From assembly GCA_025350685.1 (NCBI GenBank), contig JANXXK010000116.1, positions 1 through 45,659 of the forward strand: 45,659 nucleotides of DNA, in the 5' to 3' direction. This stretch comes from Alphaproteobacteria bacterium (lineage in GTDB: Bacteria; Pseudomonadota; Alphaproteobacteria; Caulobacterales; Caulobacteraceae). This document shows positions 29,117 through 42,983 of the stretch, one piece after another. Both the position numbers and the translations under genes were made by a program. Positions within the stretch are counted from its first letter, which is position 1. The number at the start of each line of letters is the position of its first letter. The notes under the pieces are model-generated. The model saw nothing but the letters and a program-made list of their open reading frames with translations. It did not search any database and was not told the origin of the DNA.

Positions 29117-29794
29117 ATGGGGTGGGCAATGCGACCGATCCCGCCCCTCCGCGTAACGCCCCCGGTCGCCCTGTGCGTGGCCCTCTGCGTGGCCGCCGGC
29201 CTCACCGTCCCTACGCGGGCAGGGGAGCTGGCGCTGACCCTGGAAACCCCGGCGGGCAAGCCCGTGGCCAACGCCGTGGTGATGGTGCATTCGCAAGGCG
29301 CTCAACCCCGCGCGTCAATCCGCTTTCCCTGGGCCTACGTGATGGCCCAGAAGGACACCCAGTTCGACCCGTTCGTGCTGATCGTGCCGGTGGGCGCCGA
29401 CGTCTCGTTCCCCAATCGTGACCCGATCCGCCACCACGTCTTCTCGTTTTCGCCGGCTAAGCCCTTCGAGCTGAAGCTCTACAGCCGCGACGAGACCCGC
29501 GTGGTCAGCTTCCCCAAGGCCGGCGTGGTCAGCCTGGGCTGCAACATCCACGACAACATGACCGCCTTCATCCGGGTGGTGGACACCCCCTACGCCGTCA
29601 AGAGCAACGCGGCCGGCCAGGCGGTGATCCGCGACCTGCCGGCGGGCGCGGCGACGGTGACGGTCTGGCATCCGTTCATGAAGGTTCGCGGCGGCGAGCA
29701 GAGTCGCGACGTTGTCGTGCCGGCTTCGGGCGCGCTGGCGCTGGCGATGGTCGCCGACCTTCGGCCACCGCCGCTGCGGCGGGGCGGCTACTGA
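29117..29794 (+). CDS. Exported cupredoxin-like protein (methylamine-utilization-protein-like), paralogue 1
   Basis: Signal peptide; IRHHVFSFSPAKPFELKLYSRDETRVVSFPKAGVVSLGCNIHDNMTAFIRV; amicyanin-type C-x2-H-x2-M plus upstream His. Confidence 0.82.
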   Translation: MGWAMRPIPPLRVTPPVALCVALCVAAGLTVPTRAGELALTLETPAGKPVANAVVMVHSQGAQPRASIRFPWAYVMAQKDTQFDPFVLIVPVGADVSFPNRDPIRHHVFSFSPAKPFELKLYSRDETRVVSFPKAGVVSLGCNIHDNMTAFIRVVDTPYAVKSNAAGQAVIRDLPAGAATVTVWHPFMKVRGGEQSRDVVVPASGALALAMVADLRPPPLRRGGY

Positions 29795-32148: not shown

Positions 32149-33411
32149 GTGTTGGAGGCCGACATCCCTCGGTCCTGGGCCATATCACTGACCGCGCTGA
32201 GCCTGGCCTGTTCGCTGGCCGGCGCGGCGCGTGCGCAGTCCGACATCGTCTCACCCGACACCTTCCACGGCCTGGTCGAGGTGCGCGCGGCGGCCGCGAA
32301 CGGCGAGCGCTCGTGGCTGCATGGCGGCTTCGGCAAGACCTCGGTCTCGGGGGGTGGGTCGGGCAATCTGGCGGTCAGCCAGGCCGTGCTCGAATGGAAG
32401 CCGAAGTTCAGCTTCTCGGTCTCCGGCGTGGTCAGTGTCCAGGCCCAGTCGCGGCTGCGGCCCGGCCTGGATCTGGACGAGGCCTATCTGCAGCTGCGCG
32501 CCCCGCCGGGTGAATGGGGCAGGCTCTCCGCGCGGGTGGGCTACTTCTACCCGCCCGTCTCGATGGAGCATGACGGGACGGGGTGGACCACGCCCGACAT
32601 GCTGAGCGCATCGGCGCTGAACACCTGGATCGGCGAGGAGGTCAAGGTGGCCGGCGTCGAGGCGAGCTGGCGCAAGACCCTTGGCAGCCATGAGCTGGAG
32701 GCCACCGGCGCGGTGTTCGGCTGGGACGACACCGCCGGCACCCTGCTGACGTTCCGTGGCTGGGCGTTGGGCGAGACCCGCGCGGGTGTCAGCGCCAGCT
32801 ACCACCTGCCGCCTCTGTCGCCGTTCGCAATGAGGTTCCAGGTCGACGAGACCTATCCGTTCCGTGAACTCGACAAGCGCGCCGGCTACTACGGCCGCCT
32901 CGAGTGGCGCCCGCCCGCGCCGGTCGCCTTCAACGCCCTCTACTACGACAACGCCGGCAACCGCACGGCCGTCGACTCCGACGGCCAGTGGGCCTGGGAG
33001 ACGCGGTTCCTCAATGTGGGCGTGCGCTGGGAGCCGTCCGCCGAGGTCCGGGTGCTGGCCCAGGCGATGACCGGCGAGACCAGGGAAGGCTATTCGATCC
33101 CTGGCGGAATCTGGTTCGACATGGGCTATCAGGCCGCCTACGTCCTGGCCTCGCGCAAGCTGGGCGAGGACGCCGTCAGCGGGCGGATCGACGCTTTCCG
33201 CACGCGCGACCGCACGTTCCGCAGCCTCGACGACAATCAGGAGAACGGCTGGGCGGCCACGGCCTCCTGGCGCCATCGCCTGGCGCCGCACGCGGACCTC
33301 CTCGTCGAGGCCCAGCACATCGACAGCAAGCGCGCGGCGCGGCGGCTCGTCCCCGAGGCGCCGAAGCACGATCAGAACATCCTGCAGGCGGCGCTGCGGC
33401 TGTTCTTCTAG
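32149..33411 (+). CDS. Outer-membrane beta-barrel (porin-like) protein
   Basis: Signal peptide ...LACSLAGAARAQ; alternating amphipathic strands; C-terminal LQAALRLFF with terminal Phe typical of outer-membrane barrels. Confidence 0.7.
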   Translation: MLEADIPRSWAISLTALSLACSLAGAARAQSDIVSPDTFHGLVEVRAAAANGERSWLHGGFGKTSVSGGGSGNLAVSQAVLEWKPKFSFSVSGVVSVQAQSRLRPGLDLDEAYLQLRAPPGEWGRLSARVGYFYPPVSMEHDGTGWTTPDMLSASALNTWIGEEVKVAGVEASWRKTLGSHELEATGAVFGWDDTAGTLLTFRGWALGETRAGVSASYHLPPLSPFAMRFQVDETYPFRELDKRAGYYGRLEWRPPAPVAFNALYYDNAGNRTAVDSDGQWAWETRFLNVGVRWEPSAEVRVLAQAMTGETREGYSIPGGIWFDMGYQAAYVLASRKLGEDAVSGRIDAFRTRDRTFRSLDDNQENGWAATASWRHRLAPHADLLVEAQHIDSKRAARRLVPEAPKHDQNILQAALRLFF

Positions 33412-33572
33412 TGTCCCGATTCCGAAGTTCGCAAGCTCTTGTGGCTGGCTCGGACGAACTTCGGAACCGATGAAGACACTAGCAAGTGTAGGTTTCTAGT
33501 GTGCTTTTTGGATTTGAAGTTCGCAACCGAGCAAGACCCGGAATGACGCGAACTTCAAATCCAGCATACTAG
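33408..33572 (-). repeat. Two-hairpin dispersed element, copy 1 (inverted relative to copies 2 and 3)
   Basis: CTAGTGTCCCGATTCCGAAGTTCG..CGAACTTCGGAACCGATGAAGACACTAG, 13-nt linker caagtgtaggttt, CTAGTGTGCTTTTTGGATTTGAAGTTCG..CGAACTTCAAATCCAGCATACTAG. Confidence 0.9.
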
Positions 33573-34201
33573 CCCTTCATCTCATGCTTGTGCCGGGTGG
33601 CCGGCGGGCGCAGCTCCAAGGTCAGGGGCAGGGCGGCGTTGGCCGTCACACTCAGCGGCCGCTCCGCCGGGGCGTGGGCCTTCATGTCCGGATGCCACAG
33701 GGAGACCTCGGCCGCGCCTGAGGGCACGCCGCGGATCACCGCCTCGCCCGCGGCGTTGGTCTTGGCTGCGTAGGGGCTGTCAGTGACGTAGATGAAGCCG
33801 ATCATGCTGTCGTGGATATTGCAGCCCAGCGGCACGACGCCGGCCTTCTCGAAGGTGACCGTGCGTTCCGCCTGCTGGCCGTAGAGTTTCAACTCGAATT
33901 TCTTGGTCGGCGCGAAGGAATAGACGTGGTGGCGGACCTTGTCCTTGTTGGGGAAACCCACCGTCGAGCCCACCGGTACGATCAGCACATAGGGATTAAA
34001 CGCGATGTTCTGCTGGGTCATGACGATCGGCCAGCTGAACTTGATCGGCTGGCCCACCGCGCCGCCGGCCGGATGGACCACCACCACGGCGTCAGGCAGA
34101 GGCGCGCCGTCATCGCCGTGAACGCTGAACGTAAGATCCGCCGCCGCGGCGTGGGTGGCCGTCAGAGTCAGCGCCGCCAGGGCGATCAGAAGATTTCTCA
34201 T
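33569..34201 (-). CDS. Exported cupredoxin-like protein, paralogue 2
   Basis: MRNLLIALAALTLTATHAAAADLTFSVHGDDGAPLPDAVVVVHP...VRHHVYSFAPTKKFELKLYGQQAERTVTFEKAGVVPLGCNIHDSMIGFIYV. Clearly paralogous to 29117-29794. Confidence 0.85.
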   Translation of the reverse strand: MRNLLIALAALTLTATHAAAADLTFSVHGDDGAPLPDAVVVVHPAGGAVGQPIKFSWPIVMTQQNIAFNPYVLIVPVGSTVGFPNKDKVRHHVYSFAPTKKFELKLYGQQAERTVTFEKAGVVPLGCNIHDSMIGFIYVTDSPYAAKTNAAGEAVIRGVPSGAAEVSLWHPDMKAHAPAERPLSVTANAALPLTLELRPPATRHKHEMKG

Positions 34202-34215
34202 GTCCTCCAAGTAGA

Positions 34216-34231
34216 TCGTTCGCTTGAACGA
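34216..34231. promoter_or_regulatory. Inverted repeat TCGTTC-gctt-GAACGA in the divergent promoter
   Basis: Located between the starts of cupredoxin 2 (-) and DUF3034 (+). Confidence 0.4.
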
Positions 34232-34294
34232 CATGTAAACGGGTTACCGGGCAATTCTCCGGTCCACATGGCGTGGATCGGAGACGCTGTACCC

Positions 34295-35170
34295 ATGAGA
34301 GTGTTGGTTGGACTGTGCGGCGCGGTTGCAATGCTCGCCGCGGCTGGCGCTGCCCAGGCCGGGGAACTGCGTGCCAGCGGCAAGCTGCTGCTGACCGGCG
34401 GAGTGAGCAATGTCGAGGGCGCGGGCGGCGGCGGCATCGCCTCGTGGGCGACCATCACCGGCTACGAGACCCGCGACGGGATCGGCGGTAACGTGCACGC
34501 CACCTACATCAATCTGCCGGACTATCAGTTCACCGCCTATGGCGTGGCGGCGGGCTTCTACGACCGCCTCGAGGTCAGCTACGCCCGTCAGGCGTTCGAC
34601 ACCCAGGGGACGGGCGCCAAGTTCGGCCTCGGCTCCGGCTTCACCTTCCACCAGGACGTGGTCGGCGCGAAGCTGCGGGTGCTGGGCGATGCGGTCTACG
34701 ACCAGGATAGCTGGCTGCCGCAGGTTTCGCTGGGCGCCCAGTACAAGAAGGCCGACCGCGGCACGGTGATCGGCCTGCTCGGCGGCAGGAAGGACTCCGG
34801 CGTCGACTGGTACGCCGCGGCCACCAAGCTGCTGCTGAACCAGAGCCTGGTGCTGAACGGCGCGGTGCGCGCCACCAAGGCCAACCAGACAGGTCTGCTA
34901 GGGTTCGGCGGCGGCAAGAACGACCACTATCAGGCGCAGTTGGAGGGTTCGGCGGCCGTGCTGCTCAGCCGCCGGCTGGTGGTGGGGGCGGAATACCGCA
35001 CTAAGCCCGACAACCTGCCGGGCCTGAAGGAGGACGACTGGATGGACGTCTTCGCGGCCTTCGCGCTGAACAAGACCCTGTCGGTCACAGTGGCCTATGC
35101 GGACCTCGGCGAGATTGCCACTTTCAAGGGCCAGCGCGGGGTCTACCTATCGCTGCAAGCAGGATTCTAG
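34295..35170 (+). CDS. DUF3034 family outer-membrane-type protein
   Basis: MRVLVGLCGAVAMLAAAGAAQAGELRASGKLLLTGGVSNVEGAGGGGIASWATITGYETRDGIGGNVHATYINLPDYQFTAYGVAAGFYDRLEVSYARQAFDT. Confidence 0.82.
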   Translation: MRVLVGLCGAVAMLAAAGAAQAGELRASGKLLLTGGVSNVEGAGGGGIASWATITGYETRDGIGGNVHATYINLPDYQFTAYGVAAGFYDRLEVSYARQAFDTQGTGAKFGLGSGFTFHQDVVGAKLRVLGDAVYDQDSWLPQVSLGAQYKKADRGTVIGLLGGRKDSGVDWYAAATKLLLNQSLVLNGAVRATKANQTGLLGFGGGKNDHYQAQLEGSAAVLLSRRLVVGAEYRTKPDNLPGLKEDDWMDVFAAFALNKTLSVTVAYADLGEIATFKGQRGVYLSLQAGF

Positions 35171-35173
35171 CAT

Positions 35174-35650
35174 ATGATCCGTAGTCTGACGTTCATTGCC
35201 ATCCTGACGCTCTCAGCCCCCGCCTTGGCCGAGGAAAAGTCGGTCGATCCCTATACCCAGTCGAACGCCAACGCGGGGGCCAAACCGTTCGCCGACGACC
35301 GTCTGCTGGTCGAATTCCACGGTCCAGCGGGGGTGTCGAAGATCATCGACGAGATGCTGGATGACTGCGTGAAGGATCCGCGCACGGCCGACATCTTCAA
35401 GGCCACAGACATGGAGCGTCTGCGCCGCACGCTAAAGGAACAGATCGTCTACATACTGGGTGGCAAGATCGACTACACCGGTCGCGACATGAAGGCCGTG
35501 CACAAGGACCAGGGCGTCCAGCAGATCGATTTCAACATCCTGGTCGAGTATCTGCAGATCGCCATGGACCACGAGCACGTGCCGTTCCGCGCCCAGAACC
35601 GTCTGCTGGCCAAGCTCGCGCCGATGCAGCGCGACGTGGTGGTCCGCTAG
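35174..35650 (+). CDS. Exported group I truncated hemoglobin-like protein
   Basis: Signal peptide MIRSLTFIAILTLSAPALAEE; globin core DPRTADIFKATDMERLRRTLKEQIVYILGGKIDYTGRDMKAVHKDQGVQQIDFNILVEYLQIAM with F8-like His. Confidence 0.8.
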   Translation: MIRSLTFIAILTLSAPALAEEKSVDPYTQSNANAGAKPFADDRLLVEFHGPAGVSKIIDEMLDDCVKDPRTADIFKATDMERLRRTLKEQIVYILGGKIDYTGRDMKAVHKDQGVQQIDFNILVEYLQIAMDHEHVPFRAQNRLLAKLAPMQRDVVVR

Positions 35651-35810
35651 TGTGCTGAATTTGAAGTTCGCCCGCTTCAGGGTCGCGCGCCGGAGCGAAC
35701 TTCAAATTCTTAAAGCACACTAGAAGCATAGGCTTTCTAGTGTCCTCATCGATTCCGAAGTTCGCCACAGCCCGCCACAAGCGCATGCGAACTTCGGAAT
35801 CAGGACACTA
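35647..35810 (+). repeat. Two-hairpin dispersed element, copy 2
   Basis: CTAGTGTGCTGAATTTGAAGTTCGC..GCGAACTTCAAATTCTTAAAGCACACTAG, linker aagcataggcttt, CTAGTGTCCTCATCGATTCCGAAGTTCG..CGAACTTCGGAATCAGGACACTA. Aligns to the reverse complement of copy 1. Confidence 0.9.
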
Positions 35811-35814
35811 AATC

Positions 35815-37347
35815 CTAGACGTCGAACTCGACGCCCTGGGCGAGCGGCAGGGTCGCGCCGAAGTTCACCGTGTTGGTGGCGCGGCGCATATAGGCCTTCC
35901 AGCTGTCGGAGCCGGCTTCGCGGCCACCGCCGGTTTCCTTCTCGCCGCCGAAGGCGCCGCCGATCTCGGCGCCCGAAGGGCCGATGTTGACGTTGGCGAT
36001 GCCGCAGTCGCTTCCGCGCGCCGAGATGAACAGCTCGGCCTCGCGTAGGTCGTTGGTGAAGATCGATGACGACAGGCCCTGCGGCACGTCGTTCTGCAGG
36101 CGAATGGCCTCGCCGAGGTCGGCATAGCGCATCACGTAGAGGATCGGCGCGAAGGTCTCACGGCGGACGACCTCGGCCTGCTGGCTCATCTCCACCAGCG
36201 CCGGTCGGACGTAGACGGCGTCGTCGCAGCCTGCGACCTCGACCCGCTCACCGCCGCAGACTTGGCCGCCAGCCGCCTTTGCGTCGGCCAGCGCGCGCCG
36301 GTGGCCCTCGAACGCCTGGGCGTCGATCAGCGGACCGACGAGCGTGCCGGTCTGCCGTGGGTCGCCCACCGCCACTGATGCGTAAGCGGCTTTCAGGCGC
36401 GGCAGGAAGGCGTCGTAGAGGCTCTCGTGGACGAACAGGCGGCGCAACGTCGTGCAGCGTTGGCCGGCGGTGCCCATGGCGGCGAAGGCGACCCCGCGCA
36501 GGGTCAGGTCCAGGTCGGCGGTGGGGGCGACGACGGCGGCGTTGTTGCCGCCAAGCTCCAGCAAGGCGCGGGCGAAGCGGGCGGCCAAGCGAGGCGCTAC
36601 GGCCCGCCCCATGGCAGTCGAGCCGGTGGCCGAGACCAGCGGGACCTTTGGGTGTTCGACGAGGGCCTCGCCGACCTCGCGGCCGCCGAGTATCACCGAC
36701 GACAGGCCGGCCGGCGCTTCGCCGAACTTCGCCGCCGCGCGTTCAAAGAGGGCCTGGACGGCGAGGGCGGTCAGCGGAGTCTTTTCCGAGGGCTTCCAGA
36801 CGACGGCGTCGCCGCACACGAGGGCGAGCGCGGCGTTCCACGACCAGACCGCCACCGGGAAGTTGAAGGCTGAGATCACGCCCACGACGCCCAGCGGATG
36901 CCAGGTCTCCATCATCCGGTGGTCGGGCCGCTCGGTGGCGATGGCCAAGCCGAAAAGCTGACGCGACAGGCCCACGGCGTAGTCGCAGATGTCGATCATC
37001 TCCTGCACTTCGCCGGCCGCCTCGGAGACGATCTTGCCGGCTTCCAGCGTGACCAGGGCCGCCAGGTCGGCCTTGGCCGCGCGCAGCTCCTCGCCCAGCA
37101 AGCGGACCAGCTCGCCGCGGCGGGGGGCGGGGACATTGCGCCAGGCGAGATAGGCGCAATGGGCGGCCTCGACCGCCTTTGCCACCATGGCAGGCGTCGT
37201 GTCGTGAACCTGGGCGATCGGCTCGCCGGTGAGGGGCGAATGGACGGCGCGCTCGCCGCCGGTCCACAGCGACTCGGCCACGCCGAGCCTACCAAGCACC
37301 TGGGTGGCCTCGGCCCGGGCCGAACTGATCTTCGATTGGGCGGTCAT
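35815..37347 (-). CDS. ALDH7-type aldehyde dehydrogenase (alpha-aminoadipic semialdehyde / piperideine-6-carboxylate dehydrogenase-like)
   Basis: VLGRLGVAESLWTGGERAVHSPLTGEPIA...LELGGNNAAVVAPTADLDLTLRGVAFAAMGTAGQRCTTLRRLFVHE...IGGAFGGEKETGGGREAGSDSWKAYMRRATNT. Confidence 0.9.
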   Translation of the reverse strand: MTAQSKISSARAEATQVLGRLGVAESLWTGGERAVHSPLTGEPIAQVHDTTPAMVAKAVEAAHCAYLAWRNVPAPRRGELVRLLGEELRAAKADLAALVTLEAGKIVSEAAGEVQEMIDICDYAVGLSRQLFGLAIATERPDHRMMETWHPLGVVGVISAFNFPVAVWSWNAALALVCGDAVVWKPSEKTPLTALAVQALFERAAAKFGEAPAGLSSVILGGREVGEALVEHPKVPLVSATGSTAMGRAVAPRLAARFARALLELGGNNAAVVAPTADLDLTLRGVAFAAMGTAGQRCTTLRRLFVHESLYDAFLPRLKAAYASVAVGDPRQTGTLVGPLIDAQAFEGHRRALADAKAAGGQVCGGERVEVAGCDDAVYVRPALVEMSQQAEVVRRETFAPILYVMRYADLGEAIRLQNDVPQGLSSSIFTNDLREAELFISARGSDCGIANVNIGPSGAEIGGAFGGEKETGGGREAGSDSWKAYMRRATNTVNFGATLPLAQGVEFDV

Positions 37348-37367
37348 GTTTTCTTGCTCGGGGTCTC

Positions 37368-38468
37368 TTACTCGGCGGCGGCGCGCAGTTGATCTTCGTC
37401 GGCAGCGTAGAAGGCGCCGAAGCGGTTGCCCAGGAATTGCGCCAGGGGAATGTCCTCCTGGCGGATGAACCCGGCCTGCGGCAGGGCGCCCTCGGCCAGC
37501 AGGTCAACGACGGCACAGACGGCGCCGGCCGTGGTGATCTGGATGGCGCTCTTCATCGCGCCCGCGATGGGTTGGGCGAAAACCTTGTTGACGTAGGTCT
37601 CCTGCATCAACCGCCCTTCCTTCAGTCCACTGACGGTTACGAAGACGATGACCACGTCCTGAAGGGTGGCGGGGACGGCGTTTTCCAGGATGTCCTTGAG
37701 CAGCGGTCGGCGGTTGCGCAGGCCCAGATCGTTCAGCAGCGCCTTCATGATCGCCGCGTGGCCAGGGTAGCGGATGGTGCGGTAGTTGAGATTGCGCACC
37801 TTGCCAGCGAGCGTCTGGCAGAGCGTGCCCAGGCCGCCGGAGGTGTTGAAGGCTTCGTAAATCACCCCGTCGAGGGCGAACTCCTCGCACTCCTCCAGCG
37901 CCGGGACCTCGCGCAGGACCCCGTTCACGATCGCCTCGCAGGGTTCGCAGTATTCGTTGATCACCCCGTCGGTCGACCAAGTCAGGTTATAATTCAAGGC
38001 GTTGGAGGGATAGCGCGGCAGGGCGCCGACGCGCAGGCGCACGTCGTGCAGTTCGTCGAAATGCTTGGCCAGGTCCCAGGCGGCGATAGTGATGAAGCCG
38101 GGGGCGAGGCCGCATTGCGGAATGAAGGCGGTCTTCGCGTCCGCCGCCAGCTCACGCACCACCCGGCTCGCGGCGACGTCCTCGGTGAGGTCCAGATAGT
38201 GGGCGCCGGCGGTTTTGGCTGCGCGGGCGACGATGGTGGTCAGGTGATAGGGCGAGGCGTTGACCACGGCAAAGCAGCCGCCCAGCGCCTGGGCGAGCGT
38301 CTGCGGGTCGTCAATCGGCATGGCCGCGGTCGCGGGCCTGGGCCGGGCGTCCAGCGCGGCGAGCGCCTGGGCGTTCTGGTCGATGACCAGCACCTCATAG
38401 GCGCCGCTCAGCAGGCTGGCGATGGTAGAGCCGATCTTGCCGGCTCCGACGACGGCGACCTTATGCAC
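37368..38468 (-). CDS. Saccharopine dehydrogenase-fold protein (saccharopine or lysine-6-dehydrogenase-like)
   Basis: VHKVAVVGAGKIGSTIASLLSGAYEVLVIDQN...LDLTEDVAASRVVRELAADAKTAFIPQCGLAPGFITIAA; adjacent to ALDH7 and Lrp. Confidence 0.85.
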   Translation of the reverse strand: MHKVAVVGAGKIGSTIASLLSGAYEVLVIDQNAQALAALDARPRPATAAMPIDDPQTLAQALGGCFAVVNASPYHLTTIVARAAKTAGAHYLDLTEDVAASRVVRELAADAKTAFIPQCGLAPGFITIAAWDLAKHFDELHDVRLRVGALPRYPSNALNYNLTWSTDGVINEYCEPCEAIVNGVLREVPALEECEEFALDGVIYEAFNTSGGLGTLCQTLAGKVRNLNYRTIRYPGHAAIMKALLNDLGLRNRRPLLKDILENAVPATLQDVVIVFVTVSGLKEGRLMQETYVNKVFAQPIAGAMKSAIQITTAGAVCAVVDLLAEGALPQAGFIRQEDIPLAQFLGNRFGAFYAADEDQLRAAAE

Positions 38469-38555
38469 GATGAAATCCTCCTGGGCGTGTCGTCCAAGGC
38501 TGACGGTTCGCGGCGCCGGTTTCAACTCGACTTTCGGCGTTAATGAGGATTATAT

Positions 38556-38580
38556 TGGTCGAATAGACCACCGAATTCGG
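38556..38580. promoter_or_regulatory. Candidate Lrp/AsnC operator
   Basis: 15-bp inverted repeat tggtc-gaata-gacca followed directly by the palindrome ccgaattcgg, in the divergent promoter. Confidence 0.45.
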
Positions 38581-38593
38581 CGAATCGACGACG

Positions 38594-39019
38594 ATGGACG
38601 ATCTCGACGACCATCTGCTGGCGCGCCTCAGGGAGAACGCCCGCGCACCCGTCGCCGAGCTCGCTCGCGCGCTCGGCCTCTCGCGCACCACGGTGCAGAG
38701 CCGGCTTGCCCGCCTGGAGCGCTCAGGGGTCATCGCCGGCTACGCGGTCAAGCTGTCGGAAGCCCGCGAGGCGGCCCTGATCCACGCCTTTGTCATGCTC
38801 ACCGTCGAGCCGAAGCAGGCCGCGGCCGTCACATCGGCGCTGAAACGCATGCCGGGCGTGCGCAAACTGCAGTCGGTCAGCGGACCCTTCGACATGATCG
38901 CTGCGGTGGAGGCCGCCAACGTCGGCGAGATGGATGCCCTGATCGACGAGATCGGCGGTCTGCGCGGCGTAGAGCGCACCAATTCCTCGATCGTGCTGGC
39001 GACCAAGTTCGACCGGTAG
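38594..39019 (+). CDS. Lrp/AsnC family transcriptional regulator
   Basis: MDDLDDHLLARLRENARAPVAELARALGLSRTTVQSRLARLERSGVIAGYAVKL. Confidence 0.93.
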   Translation: MDDLDDHLLARLRENARAPVAELARALGLSRTTVQSRLARLERSGVIAGYAVKLSEAREAALIHAFVMLTVEPKQAAAVTSALKRMPGVRKLQSVSGPFDMIAAVEAANVGEMDALIDEIGGLRGVERTNSSIVLATKFDR

Positions 39020-39065
39020 TGATGGGCTTGGATTCCCGCTTTCGCGGGGATGAGTCGCCACACGC

Positions 39066-40151
39066 TCATTTTTGCCGTGACGGCTTCAGACCTTGCATGG
39101 CTTCAAGGTTGCCCCCCAGCCGATCCTCCTGCACGGCTTTCAACAGCACGCGGGCAGCATTCTTGACCTCCAGCTGTATCGCCGTGTCGGTATCCAACTC
39201 GTCGTGGCTGGTGGCGTAGGGCTTCCAGTAACCCACGTAGCGGTCCAGTTCGGCGGTGGGCCCGGCGGAGCGCAGCTCCATTGAACTAAGCCAGTCGTGG
39301 AGCGCGCTGCGGACATTCTGTGCCCCTTCCACGTCGCCGTGCACCACAAGGGCGAACTGCCGGCCCGCCAGGTGCTTGGGATAGTCCCAGCCGTCGAGCT
39401 CTAGCTGCTTGGCTTCTTTCGGTTTCTTGCCGTGGGTCGAGCTGGGATCGGGGTTGCCGCCGTCGGCGCAGACCAGCCGGTCGATCATCAGCTTCAGCGG
39501 CGAGGAGGTCATGTACCAGTTGACCGGCGTGACGATCATCACGCCGTGAGCCTCCACCCACATGGGGTAGATCTCGTTCATCCAGTCCTGAGTCTGGCCC
39601 AGCGAATAGTTCGGGTAGCAGGAGCACGGCCAGTGGCAGAGCGCCGCGGCGGTAGAGAAGCAGGCCTTGCAGGGGTGGATCTCGCGCCCGTACTCCGAGG
39701 TCAGCCGCGACAGGTCCAGCACATTGACCTCGGCGCCCTTGGCGCCGCCCAGGATGCGCCGCGCCATGGCGATGAAGCGGTAGGACTTGGACATCTCGCC
39801 CGGGCAGGTGTGCTCGCTGCGCGACGAGGCGTTGATCAGCAGGAAGCGCATCGGCCCTTTCTCGTCGTCGTGCCGCGCCTGGGCGGCCTTCACCGCGTCG
39901 CGCGCGGCGATCCAATCCACCGACAGGTCGTAGCTCGGGTCGGCGAAGCCCTCGCCCGCCTTGCGCGTCACCGGCGACTTGCGGGCATTGATGTAGCCGT
40001 CCCAGGCCGCGTCGGCGATGCGCGCCAGGTCGGCGGCCAGCGGCCCGAAGGCGGGATCCTTGAACTGGCTGTTGAAGCGGGCGGTGAACGCGGTCTTGGT
40101 GAGCTCCGGGCTCGGCATGCCCTTGCGGGGCTCGGGGGCGCGAGGCGGCAT
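39066..40151 (-). CDS. Flavodoxin/NADPH-dependent FMN reductase-like protein
   Basis: MRFLLINASSRSEHTCPGEMSKSYRFIAMARRIL; GVMIVTPVNWYMTSSPLKLMIDRLVCADGGNPDPSSTHGKKP. Confidence 0.82.
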   Translation of the reverse strand: MPPRAPEPRKGMPSPELTKTAFTARFNSQFKDPAFGPLAADLARIADAAWDGYINARKSPVTRKAGEGFADPSYDLSVDWIAARDAVKAAQARHDDEKGPMRFLLINASSRSEHTCPGEMSKSYRFIAMARRILGGAKGAEVNVLDLSRLTSEYGREIHPCKACFSTAAALCHWPCSCYPNYSLGQTQDWMNEIYPMWVEAHGVMIVTPVNWYMTSSPLKLMIDRLVCADGGNPDPSSTHGKKPKEAKQLELDGWDYPKHLAGRQFALVVHGDVEGAQNVRSALHDWLSSMELRSAGPTAELDRYVGYWKPYATSHDELDTDTAIQLEVKNAARVLLKAVQEDRLGGNLEAMQGLKPSRQK

Positions 40152-40317
40152 GCGGTCTGGCTCCTGGATTGACGCCAGGAGCCAACGGGGTGATGAGCTG
40201 CCAGTTCCGTAAAATCCGCGCGTGAAAACAGCCGTTTCCGGTGTTTTTCCGCTGTAAACCTGACCTAAACACACCCTGGCCTAAGGTGTGCGCTCACTCG
40301 GAGTGCCCTCGGCCCCC

Positions 40318-42825
40318 ATGAAATCGCTTTCGCGCCGGTTCCTGATCAGCGTTGGGCTGATGTCGCTGGTCATGACCGTGCTCGGCACGCTGGGGGCGTT
40401 CGTCGTCTTCGAGCGCGAACTGTCGAGCCGTCAGATCGGCTACCTGACCGACTACGTGCGCGAGCGCTCCAGCAACGTCGACCGCCAGTTCTCCAATCTG
40501 TCGACCCTGCACAAGGCCGCCGGCGAGGAGCTTGAACGGCGGATGAACCTGCTGACCCCGGTCCAGGTCGACGCCCTCGCTGACGAATACTTTCCGCTCC
40601 AGTCCGACGGCACGCGCCGCAGCCGCCCGAAGTATTTCGACGGGGCCATGGAGCGGGGCGAATACACCTACGGCATGGGCTCCTACATCGGCCAGGCCGA
40701 AAAGATGACGCCCGAGCAGAAGAAGTCGCTGGTGGCCGCCTTCCAGCTGGTCTCCAACTTTGGCCAGGCCGCCCGGCGCGAGTACGACAACTTCTACTTT
40801 TTCACCCCGCCGGCGACCCGGCTGGTGGTCTATGGGCCCGACCGTCCCGACCACCTGATGTTCTACCGCCATGACGCGCCGGCCGACCTGTCGATCGCCA
40901 ACGAAGAGATGGCCAGCACCACCTCGCCGGCGTTGGATCCCACGCGGGTGACGCGCTGCACCAACCTGCAACGCCTGATCCAGGACAAGGTCGGCAAGCG
41001 GCTGGCGACGGCCTGCATGACGCCGGCCTACGTCAACGGCCGCTACGTCGGCGCCTTCGGGTCGTCGATGGAACTGACCCACTTCTTCCTGAACGCTGTG
41101 AAGGATACGCCCTCCGGTGCCTCGCCGATGATCGTCACGTCCAAGGGTGAGCTAATCGCCTATCCGGGCTTCACCGATCAGTCGAAGAGCCCGGAGAAGA
41201 CCCTGGCCGGCTACGAGAGAAACTTCGGCCTGAGGAAGCTGATCGTCGCCGTCGCCAAGGATGGCCGTGAAAACGGCGTGATTGCCAGCCCGGACGGGCG
41301 CCAGATCGTCGCCTTCGGCCGCCTGAGCGGCCCTAACTGGTATCTGCTGCTGACCTATCCCAAGGCCGAGGTGATGACCTCGGCGGCACGCTCGGTCTCC
41401 TGGGTGCTGCTGATCGGCGGCATCGCTTCGGCGTTGCAGACGCTCGCTGTCGTATTGCTTGCGCGGCGCAGTATCGTGCGACCGGTCGAGCGACTGGCGG
41501 CCTCCTGCGAACCGGAGGACGGCGCCGAGCGTCCCGACGTCAGCGATGTCGAACGCCGCAATGACGAGATCGGCGTCCTGGCCACCTCGCTGCGCACCGA
41601 GCGCGAGAAGACCGAGGCGGTGATGGCCTCGCTGGAGGACCGGGTCAGCGAACGCACCGCCCAGCTCGAGCGCGCCAACACCGAGAAGTCGCGCTTCCTG
41701 GCCAACATGAGCCACGAACTGCGCACGCCCCTGAACGGCGTCATCGCCATTTCCGAGACCCTGGCCGGCAAGCAGACCACCGCCAAGGGCCGCGAGCTGG
41801 CTGAGCTGATCGTCTCCTCCGGCCGGCTGTTGGAACGCGTGCTGACCGACATTCTCGACTTCTCGAAGATCGAGGCGGGCGAGATCACCCTCACCCGCGA
41901 CGAGTTCTCGATGAACCGGCTGGTGGGCGGTATCGCCGAGCTGCACCGCGCGTCCGCCCAGAGTAAGGGCCTGGCGTTTCACTGGGCCGTCGCGCCGCAG
42001 GCCGAAGGCTGGTTCGCCGGCGACACGGTCAGGCTCACCCAGGTGCTTTCCAACCTGCTCTCCAACGCGGTCAAGTTCACCGAGGCCGGCCAGGTCCGAC
42101 TGGATGTCAGCCGCAATGACGACGGCGTCGGCTTCGCCGTGTCCGACACCGGTATCGGTTTCGACGAGGAGACCGGCGCCAGGCTTTTCCGCCGCTTCGA
42201 ACAGGCTGACGCCTCGATCCGCCGGCGCTTCGGAGGCACGGGCCTGGGCCTGGCCATCAGTCGCTCGCTGATCGAGCTGATGGGCGGCCGGATCGAGGTC
42301 GCCTCCACGCCGGGCGAAGGTTCGACCTTCCTGGTACGGGTCCCGCTCGAGGCGCTCGATGGCGAAGCTCAGGTCGACGCTGGTCAGGCGCCGGACGTGA
42401 TCGACATCGCCGGCGCCCGCGTGCTGGTGGCCGAGGACCATCCGACCAACCAGAAAGTCGTCGAACTGATCCTGGAATCGGTCGGCGTGACCCCGACGAT
42501 CGTCGAGAACGGCGCGCTCGCGCTGGCCGCTCTGAAGGCCGAGCGCTTCGACGTGGTGCTGATGGACATGCAGATGCCGGAGCTGGACGGCCTGTCGGCC
42601 ACCGTCATGCTGCGCGCCTGGGAGAAGCAGACCGGAAGCCGGCGCACGCCGGTGATCATGCTGACCGCAAACGCGCTGGACGACCACGTCCGCTCCAGCC
42701 AGGAGGCCGGCGCCGACCTGCATCTGTCAAAGCCGATACACGCCCAGGCGCTGATCGAGAGCATCATGCACGCCATCGCCGCCCAGCCCGGCGAATCCCC
42801 CGGCGCCGAGGCCGACGTCGCCTAG
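40318..42825 (+). CDS. Hybrid sensor histidine kinase/response regulator
   Basis: Two TMs flanking a long sensor; [23 protein letters not shown]; HATPase [41 protein letters not shown]...[18 protein letters not shown]. Confidence 0.95.
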
Positions 42826-42983
42826 TGTGGTGGTTCCGAAGTTCGCCTGATGGATGGGGCAAGCTCTGTCGCGAACTTCAGAACCGTAAAACACAATAGA
42901 AACATAGACTTGCTAGTGTCCTTATCGATGCCGAAGTTCGTCGGACACCCGCCCCAGACGTGGGCGAGTTCGGAATCGGGACA
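42822..42983 (+). repeat. Two-hairpin dispersed element, copy 3
   Basis: CTAGTGTGGTGGTTCCGAAGTTCGC..GCGAACTTCAGAACCGTAAAACACAATAG, linker aaacatagacttg, CTAGTGTCCTTATCGATGCCGAAGTTCG..CGAGTTCGGAATCGGGACA. Right end degraded. Confidence 0.85.

What the first reader, a model, noticed from the sequence alone, without database searches (positions are those of the whole stretch)
33400..42830. Repeat ends supply the stop codons of four flanking genes; a clean empty site can be reconstructed
Seen directly: the terminal CTAG of the element contains the TAG stop of the porin-like gene (33409-33411), of cupredoxin 2 on the minus strand (33569-33571), of the truncated hemoglobin (35648-35650) and of the hybrid kinase (42823-42825). 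Removing copy 1 with one TA leaves ...CTGTTCTTCTAGCCCTTCATC..., where one palindromic CTAG stops both convergent genes. Removing copy 2 leaves CGC-TAA, still a stop. Established: IS630/Tc1-mariner elements insert at TA, often in CTAG, and duplicate TA. Inference: the element targets TA in stop codons, which makes insertion neutral because a stop is regenerated. This stop-codon niche appears worth describing.
Basis: partly seen in the sequence, partly recalled or inferred. Interest (0 to 1): 0.8.

Follow-up and report, generated by a model that had tools for sequence, protein, structure and literature searches.

The report
CTAG-targeting twin-hairpin repeat at stop codons
A 165-bp mobile DNA repeat made of two hairpins, found here and there across Alphaproteobacteria, inserts into the rare sequence CTAG; in these GC-rich genomes that is very often the stop codon of a gene, and because the repeat also begins and ends with CTAG the stop is rebuilt and the gene is unharmed.

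Summary
Three copies of a ~165-bp repeat lie at 33408-33572, 35647-35811 and 42822-~42987, and their terminal CTAG supplies the TAG of the four named genes. Across 108 non-redundant full copies from several genomes, 72 (67%) abut a gene with an exact stop overlap. Related genomes without the element show a single CTAG as the stop at the same place (porin, kinase and two other sites), so the stop predates insertion. At the hemoglobin/aldehyde-dehydrogenase site a second species carries the element at the same CTAG in opposite orientation.

The interpretation needs correction. The target is CTAG, not stop codons as such. In these genomes 44.5% of CTAGs outside coding interiors are already stop codons; the remaining excess (odds ratio 2.5, p=3e-5) fits selection against other sites, though 3'-end targeting or retained 3'-UTR function is not excluded. 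IS630 mobilisation is unsupported: one IS630 in the own genome, none in 9 of 11 carriers, no matching ends.

The element is a MITE-like, CIR-like twin hairpin with strong stem covariation and CcrM (GANTC) sites, found in at least ten alphaproteobacterial families and on plasmids. Its transposase is unknown.

The parts
33408..33572 (-). Copy 1 of the twin-hairpin element (hairpin A left, hairpin B right); its left CTAG contains the porin stop and its right CTAG the cupredoxin stop
33408..33411 (+). Left terminal CTAG; TAG 33409-33411 is the stop of the porin-like gene; element-free relatives have ...TTCTAG at the same aligned place
33569..33572 (-). Right terminal CTAG; stop of the convergent cupredoxin-like gene on the minus strand
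35647..35811 (+). Copy 2 (hairpin B left, hairpin A right); left CTAG contains the truncated-hemoglobin stop; right end reads CTAA
42822..42987 (+). Copy 3 (B left, A right), degenerate; left CTAG contains the hybrid-kinase stop; right end decayed (GGGACAGGGC)
32149..33411 (+). Porin-like gene ended by copy 1
   Evidence: no Pfam match
33569..34234 (-). Cupredoxin-like gene ended by copy 1
   Evidence: weak, below Pfam cut-off
35174..35650 (+). Truncated hemoglobin (PF01152) ended by copy 2
35815..37347 (-). Aldehyde dehydrogenase (PF00171); its own CTAG stop lies 4 bases beyond copy 2; in relative G085 this stop is the element's terminal CTAG
40288..42825 (+). Hybrid histidine kinase (HisKA-HATPase-REC) ended by copy 3; element-free G085 and G015 end ..GTCGCCTAG

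Best explanation
The repeat is a non-autonomous, MITE-like mobile element of about 165 bp: hairpin B, a 13-nt linker, hairpin A, with CTAG at the foot of each hairpin. A transposase acting in trans, not identified here, inserts it into a pre-existing CTAG so that CTAG stands at both ends afterwards, by duplicating either TA or CTAG. CTAG is its own reverse complement, so if the target was the C-TAG end of a gene the reading frame still meets TAG at the same codon, and for two convergent genes sharing one CTAG each side keeps a stop. CTAG is rare in coding interiors and strongly concentrated at gene ends in these GC-rich genomes, so a CTAG-specific element that survives purifying selection accumulates at stop codons. 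Shown: anatomy, CTAG flanks, empty sites with a single CTAG, exact stop preservation, repeated use of one site, stem covariation. Inferred: transposition in trans, selection as the cause of the 2.5-fold excess, and the absence of a fitness cost.
For: About 20 full and 6 partial copies in the own genome; patchy in the genus, from no copies to dozens (62 matching arms in G088, 47 in G061). Ends are CTAG at 86 of 95 left and 86 of 95 right. Empty sites in relatives: porin in G112, G047, G009, G091; kinase in G085, G015; L013 site as one clean CTAG in G088, G085, G071; L003 site in G088, G061, G085. The hemoglobin/aldehyde-dehydrogenase CTAG carries the element in G000 and G085 in opposite orientations. 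Exact stop overlap 72 of 108 against 178 of 400 background CTAGs. Only 2 of 95 copies have a gene reading into the element. Codon periodicity runs right up to the CTAG. NCBI annotation of two Labrenzia/Roseibium plasmids places an SDR gene's stop exactly in the element's end.
Against: No transposase with matching ends was found: RAYT PF01797 absent from the own genome, IS630 rare and unlike, IS481 absent from the own genome and unlike in relatives. The excess at stops over the CTAG background is not fully explained: divergent intergenic CTAGs are no more depleted than co-directional ones (8 of 25 against 67 of 192), so simple avoidance of promoters does not account for it. At the L014 site relatives have CAAG or other letters, not CTAG. 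Across the class only 4 of 17 copies scored as stop overlaps, with a poorly trained gene caller.
Confidence: 0.82

Rival explanations
1. The transposition machinery, or a host factor, actively favours gene 3' ends or stop codons beyond CTAG itself, for example by following termination of transcription or translation.
For: Stop use exceeds the CTAG background (67% against 44.5%, p=3e-5); in the exact-pattern set of other genomes 54 of 77 against 42.5%.
Against: No sequence context beyond CTAG at insertion sites; not significant in the own genome alone (10 of 18 against 46%); selection against other sites predicts the same direction.
Confidence: 0.12
2. The element is kept where it works as a 3'-UTR hairpin (RNase III site, mRNA end protection, control of termination, CcrM-linked signal), and selection for that function enriches it next to stops.
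For: Strong compensatory change in the stems (17 of 49 pairs with both sides changed; 58 cells against 14 in shuffles); DNA fold z-score -7.7; GANTC in hairpin A of most of the 19 own-genome copies, 17 with at least one site, against 0.19 expected per 165 bp.
Against: Copies are patchy between close relatives and the flanking genes have unrelated functions; no T-tract typical of an intrinsic terminator follows the hairpins in the sequence; hairpin maintenance is equally expected if the hairpin is needed for transposition.
Confidence: 0.15
3. The element carries CTAG itself, inserts anywhere, and creates new stops that truncate or extend genes.
For: Two own-genome copies (L005, L017) have a gene reading into the element; the L014 site is CAAG in relatives.
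Against: Element-free relatives end at the same CTAG at the porin, kinase, L003 and L013 sites.
Confidence: 0.04
4. It is an IS630/Tc1-mariner-derived MITE with TA duplication.
For: TA is always inside the target; three TTAG left ends and four CTAn right ends would fit a TA duplication in an nTAn target.
Against: IS630 transposase absent from 9 of 11 carriers and no matching terminal repeats; the outer base varies little more than the inner ones (11 of 190 ends against 3 to 8).
Confidence: 0.15

Closest known systems
CIR sequences (Caulobacter CcrM-associated intergenic repeats; Chen and Shapiro 2003, as described in PMC2229807 and PMC10969869)
   Same: Alphaproteobacterial dispersed intergenic repeat; two long inverted repeats forming two arms joined by a linker; TA at the termini; GANTC sites
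   Different: CIRs are described as about 110 bp with GANTC at a terminal loop; here about 165 bp with GANTC in the stem of hairpin A. Sequence identity with CIR1-4 not tested (original paper not held). CTAG targeting and stop-codon preservation were not found in the held texts on CIR.
TA-flanked bacterial MITEs (Correia/NEMIS, ERIC/RU-1, RUP)
   Same: Small, inverted-repeat ends, mostly intergenic, presumed mobilised in trans
   Different: Those form one stem-loop by 5'-3' end pairing (PMC2229807); here two hairpins. RU-1 and QMITE2 insertions at 3' ends can remove the stop and extend the protein (PMC2759123, PMC5896051); here the stop is kept exactly.
REP/BIME elements with RAYT (TnpA_REP) transposases
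   Same: Paired hairpins with a conserved tetranucleotide at the foot (from memory)
   Different: RAYT absent from the own genome and not tracking the element in the genus; the tetranucleotide here is a palindromic target at both ends.
IS481-family insertion sequences
   Same: A 1033-bp IS481 relative in G104 (L296) sits between CTAG repeats; CTAG targeting by IS481 itself is from memory
   Different: No IS481 transposase in the own genome and no similarity of terminal repeats.

Membership tests
CIR sequences | Two hairpin arms joined by a linker | tested here: met
   27-copy alignment, 49 stem pairs, 98% paired, both arms covarying
CIR sequences | TA at the termini | tested here: met
   CTAG at 86 of 95 left and 86 of 95 right ends
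CIR sequences | CcrM site GANTC conserved in the repeat | tested here: met
   17 of 19 own-genome copies have at least one, usually in both arms of hairpin A; position differs (stem, not terminal loop)
CIR sequences | Sequence homology to CIR1-CIR4 of C. crescentus | not testable with these tools
IS630/Tc1-mariner-derived MITE | Terminal repeats shared with an IS630-family IS | tested here: not met
   The only two IS630 loci in 11 carriers have no matching ends
IS630/Tc1-mariner-derived MITE | 2-bp TA target duplication | tested here: inconclusive
   CTAG on both sides; TA and CTAG duplication cannot be separated
IS481-derived MITE | Terminal repeats shared with an IS481-family IS | tested here: not met
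   No match in 30 IS481 loci of the genus
REP/BIME-RAYT | RAYT transposase in carrier genomes | tested here: not met
   PF01797 not found in G000 (93% complete) nor in most carriers
MITE (general) | Short, no coding capacity, inverted-repeat ends, dispersed multi-copy, flanked by a target duplication | tested here: met
   occupied and empty sites

The most novel reading that the evidence does not exclude
An Alphaproteobacteria-wide mobile hairpin family whose palindromic target and ends make the stop codon its main landing site, with targeting or retention at gene 3' ends beyond what CTAG abundance explains.
Probability: 0.25. Interest if true: 0.65.

Novelty: new variant of a known kind. Interest (0 to 1): 0.48.

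Why it matters
It gives a simple, quantified way for a mobile element to spread in gene-dense bacterial genomes without breaking genes: a palindromic target that is itself a stop codon. It predicts where such elements accumulate (genomes rich in CTAG stops), explains convergent gene pairs with a shared CTAG as reusable docking sites, and places strong hairpins, often with CcrM sites, directly behind stop codons, where effects on termination, mRNA ends or ribosome release can be tested.

Tried and rejected
Rfam: no family matches. RAYT/REP: not correlated. IS630 as mobiliser: rare and unlike. IS481 as mobiliser: ends unlike. Two inverted copies 754 bp apart in G061 looked like a candidate autonomous element, but the gene between them reads as a YceI-like protein (my reading, no family search), not a transposase. 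Extended target motif beyond CTAG: none. Orientation bias relative to the stop: B end adjacent in 34, A end in 21, weak, not pursued. Class-wide stop test was weak because gene calling could not be trained well per genome. Literature searches for MITE insertion into stop codons or CTAG found no report of this pattern in the held library.

Full report
Observation. The window holds three copies of a repeat of about 165 bp at 33408-33572, 35647-35811 and 42822-~42987. Each consists of hairpin B (CTAGTGTGC...GCACACTAG), a 13-nt linker and hairpin A (CTAGTGTCC...GGACACTAG). The right end of copy 2 is CTAA and the right end of copy 3 is decayed.

Extent. The own genome is a 3.88-Mb, 343-contig, 93%-complete assembly; it has about 20 full and 6 partial copies. 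Within the genus the element is patchy: 5 of 40 genomes in the first sample, the own one included, and among carriers from 1 to 62 matches to one arm. Exact pattern matches occur in Phenylobacterium and Caulobacter records, including the isolate Caulobacter ginsengisoli DSM 18695. Weaker matches, many full-length, occur in other families of the order, in 13 other genomes of 385 sampled from the class spanning at least ten families, and on two Labrenzia/Roseibium plasmids; none in phages.

Structure. In a 27-copy alignment, 49 stem pairs are 98% paired; 17 pairs change on both sides, with 58 such cells against 14 in shuffles and at most 4 in slid controls. Single-strand DNA folding gives z = -7.7. 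GANTC, the CcrM methylation site, is present in 17 of 19 own-genome copies, mostly in hairpin A, against 0.19 expected per 165 bp. Single or hybrid hairpin copies (L021, L023) look like deletions between internal direct repeats.

Target. Of 95 non-redundant full copies, 86 have CTAG at the left end and 86 at the right. Insertion sites show no further consensus. Relatives without the element show one CTAG at the same place: porin stop in G112, G047, G009 and G091, with TGA or TTTTAG in others; kinase stop ..GTCGCCTAG in G085 and G015; L013 site in G088, G085 and G071; L003 site in G088, G061 and G085. One intergenic site (L014) has CAAG in relatives. At the hemoglobin/aldehyde-dehydrogenase junction G085 has the element at the same CTAG as G000 but in the opposite orientation, most simply two independent insertions; there both terminal CTAGs are stops. 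In G228 two copies lie in tandem sharing one CTAG.

Stop codons. Two of 95 copies have a gene reading into the element. The null matters: over 588 kb of the own genome and about 700 kb of other loci, CTAGs outside coding interiors are stops in 178 of 400 cases, and 28% of all CTAGs are coding-interior. The excess is an odds ratio of 2.5 (p = 3e-5), but is not significant in the own genome alone (p = 0.30). The set from other genomes was found by an exact pattern and so leans to well-preserved copies; a smaller set found by similarity gave 8 of 13. NCBI's own annotation of the Labrenzia and Roseibium plasmids ends an SDR gene in the element's terminal CTAG.

Mechanism. The simplest account is CTAG-specific transposition of a non-autonomous element plus loss of harmful insertions. 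Because CTAG is a palindrome and stands at both ends after insertion, a C-TAG stop is rebuilt on either side. The transposase is not identified: RAYT, IS630 and IS481 were checked and none fits. Whether TA or CTAG is duplicated cannot be decided from CTAG-flanked copies.

Comparison. The architecture matches what the held reviews say of CIR sequences of Caulobacter and other Alphaproteobacteria: two arms, linker, TA termini, GANTC (PMC2229807, PMC10969869). Length and GANTC position differ, and sequence identity could not be tested. MITE insertions at gene 3' ends that extend the protein are known (PMC2759123, PMC5896051); exact preservation of the stop through a palindromic target was not found in the held literature.

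Verdict. Real, general and well explained; the phrase 'targets stop codons' should become 'targets CTAG, which is mostly harmless at stop codons'.

Noticed in passing
L003:1663-1730 (right flank of an own-genome copy): The 60-odd bases beyond this copy (CTTTTTCGCTCTTCCTGATCGGCTGACTTCAAGAAAGTCAGCCG) match several other places in relative G088: a second dispersed repeat family next to the element.
   Followed up: no
L296:1386-2418 (G104): A 1033-bp IS481-family element with ends GTGTGTGGTCCC..GGGACCACACAC sits between two CTAGs, so another CTAG-flanked transposon exists in this genus.
   Followed up: partly
L313:1-328 (G228 C56): Two nearly identical element copies in tandem sharing one CTAG, at a contig end.
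   Followed up: partly
L321:751-1834 (G061 C127): Two element copies in inverted orientation flank a single gene that reads as YceI-like (my reading, no family search), a possible composite arrangement.
   Followed up: partly
window 29329-29684 and 33679-34034: 356-bp inverted repeat at 72%; the two arms appear to be paralogous cupredoxin-like genes flanking a GGDEF-EAL gene and the porin gene; several relatives show two nearby matches to the cupredoxin part.
   Followed up: no
L023:1490-1561 and L021:1501-1576: Single-hairpin derivatives, one a B/A hybrid and one a clean hairpin A, also ending genes with their CTAG.
   Followed up: partly
L017:1501-1666 and L005:1501-1666: Two copies where a flanking gene reads into the element and stops inside it, so the stop is not preserved.
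   Followed up: no
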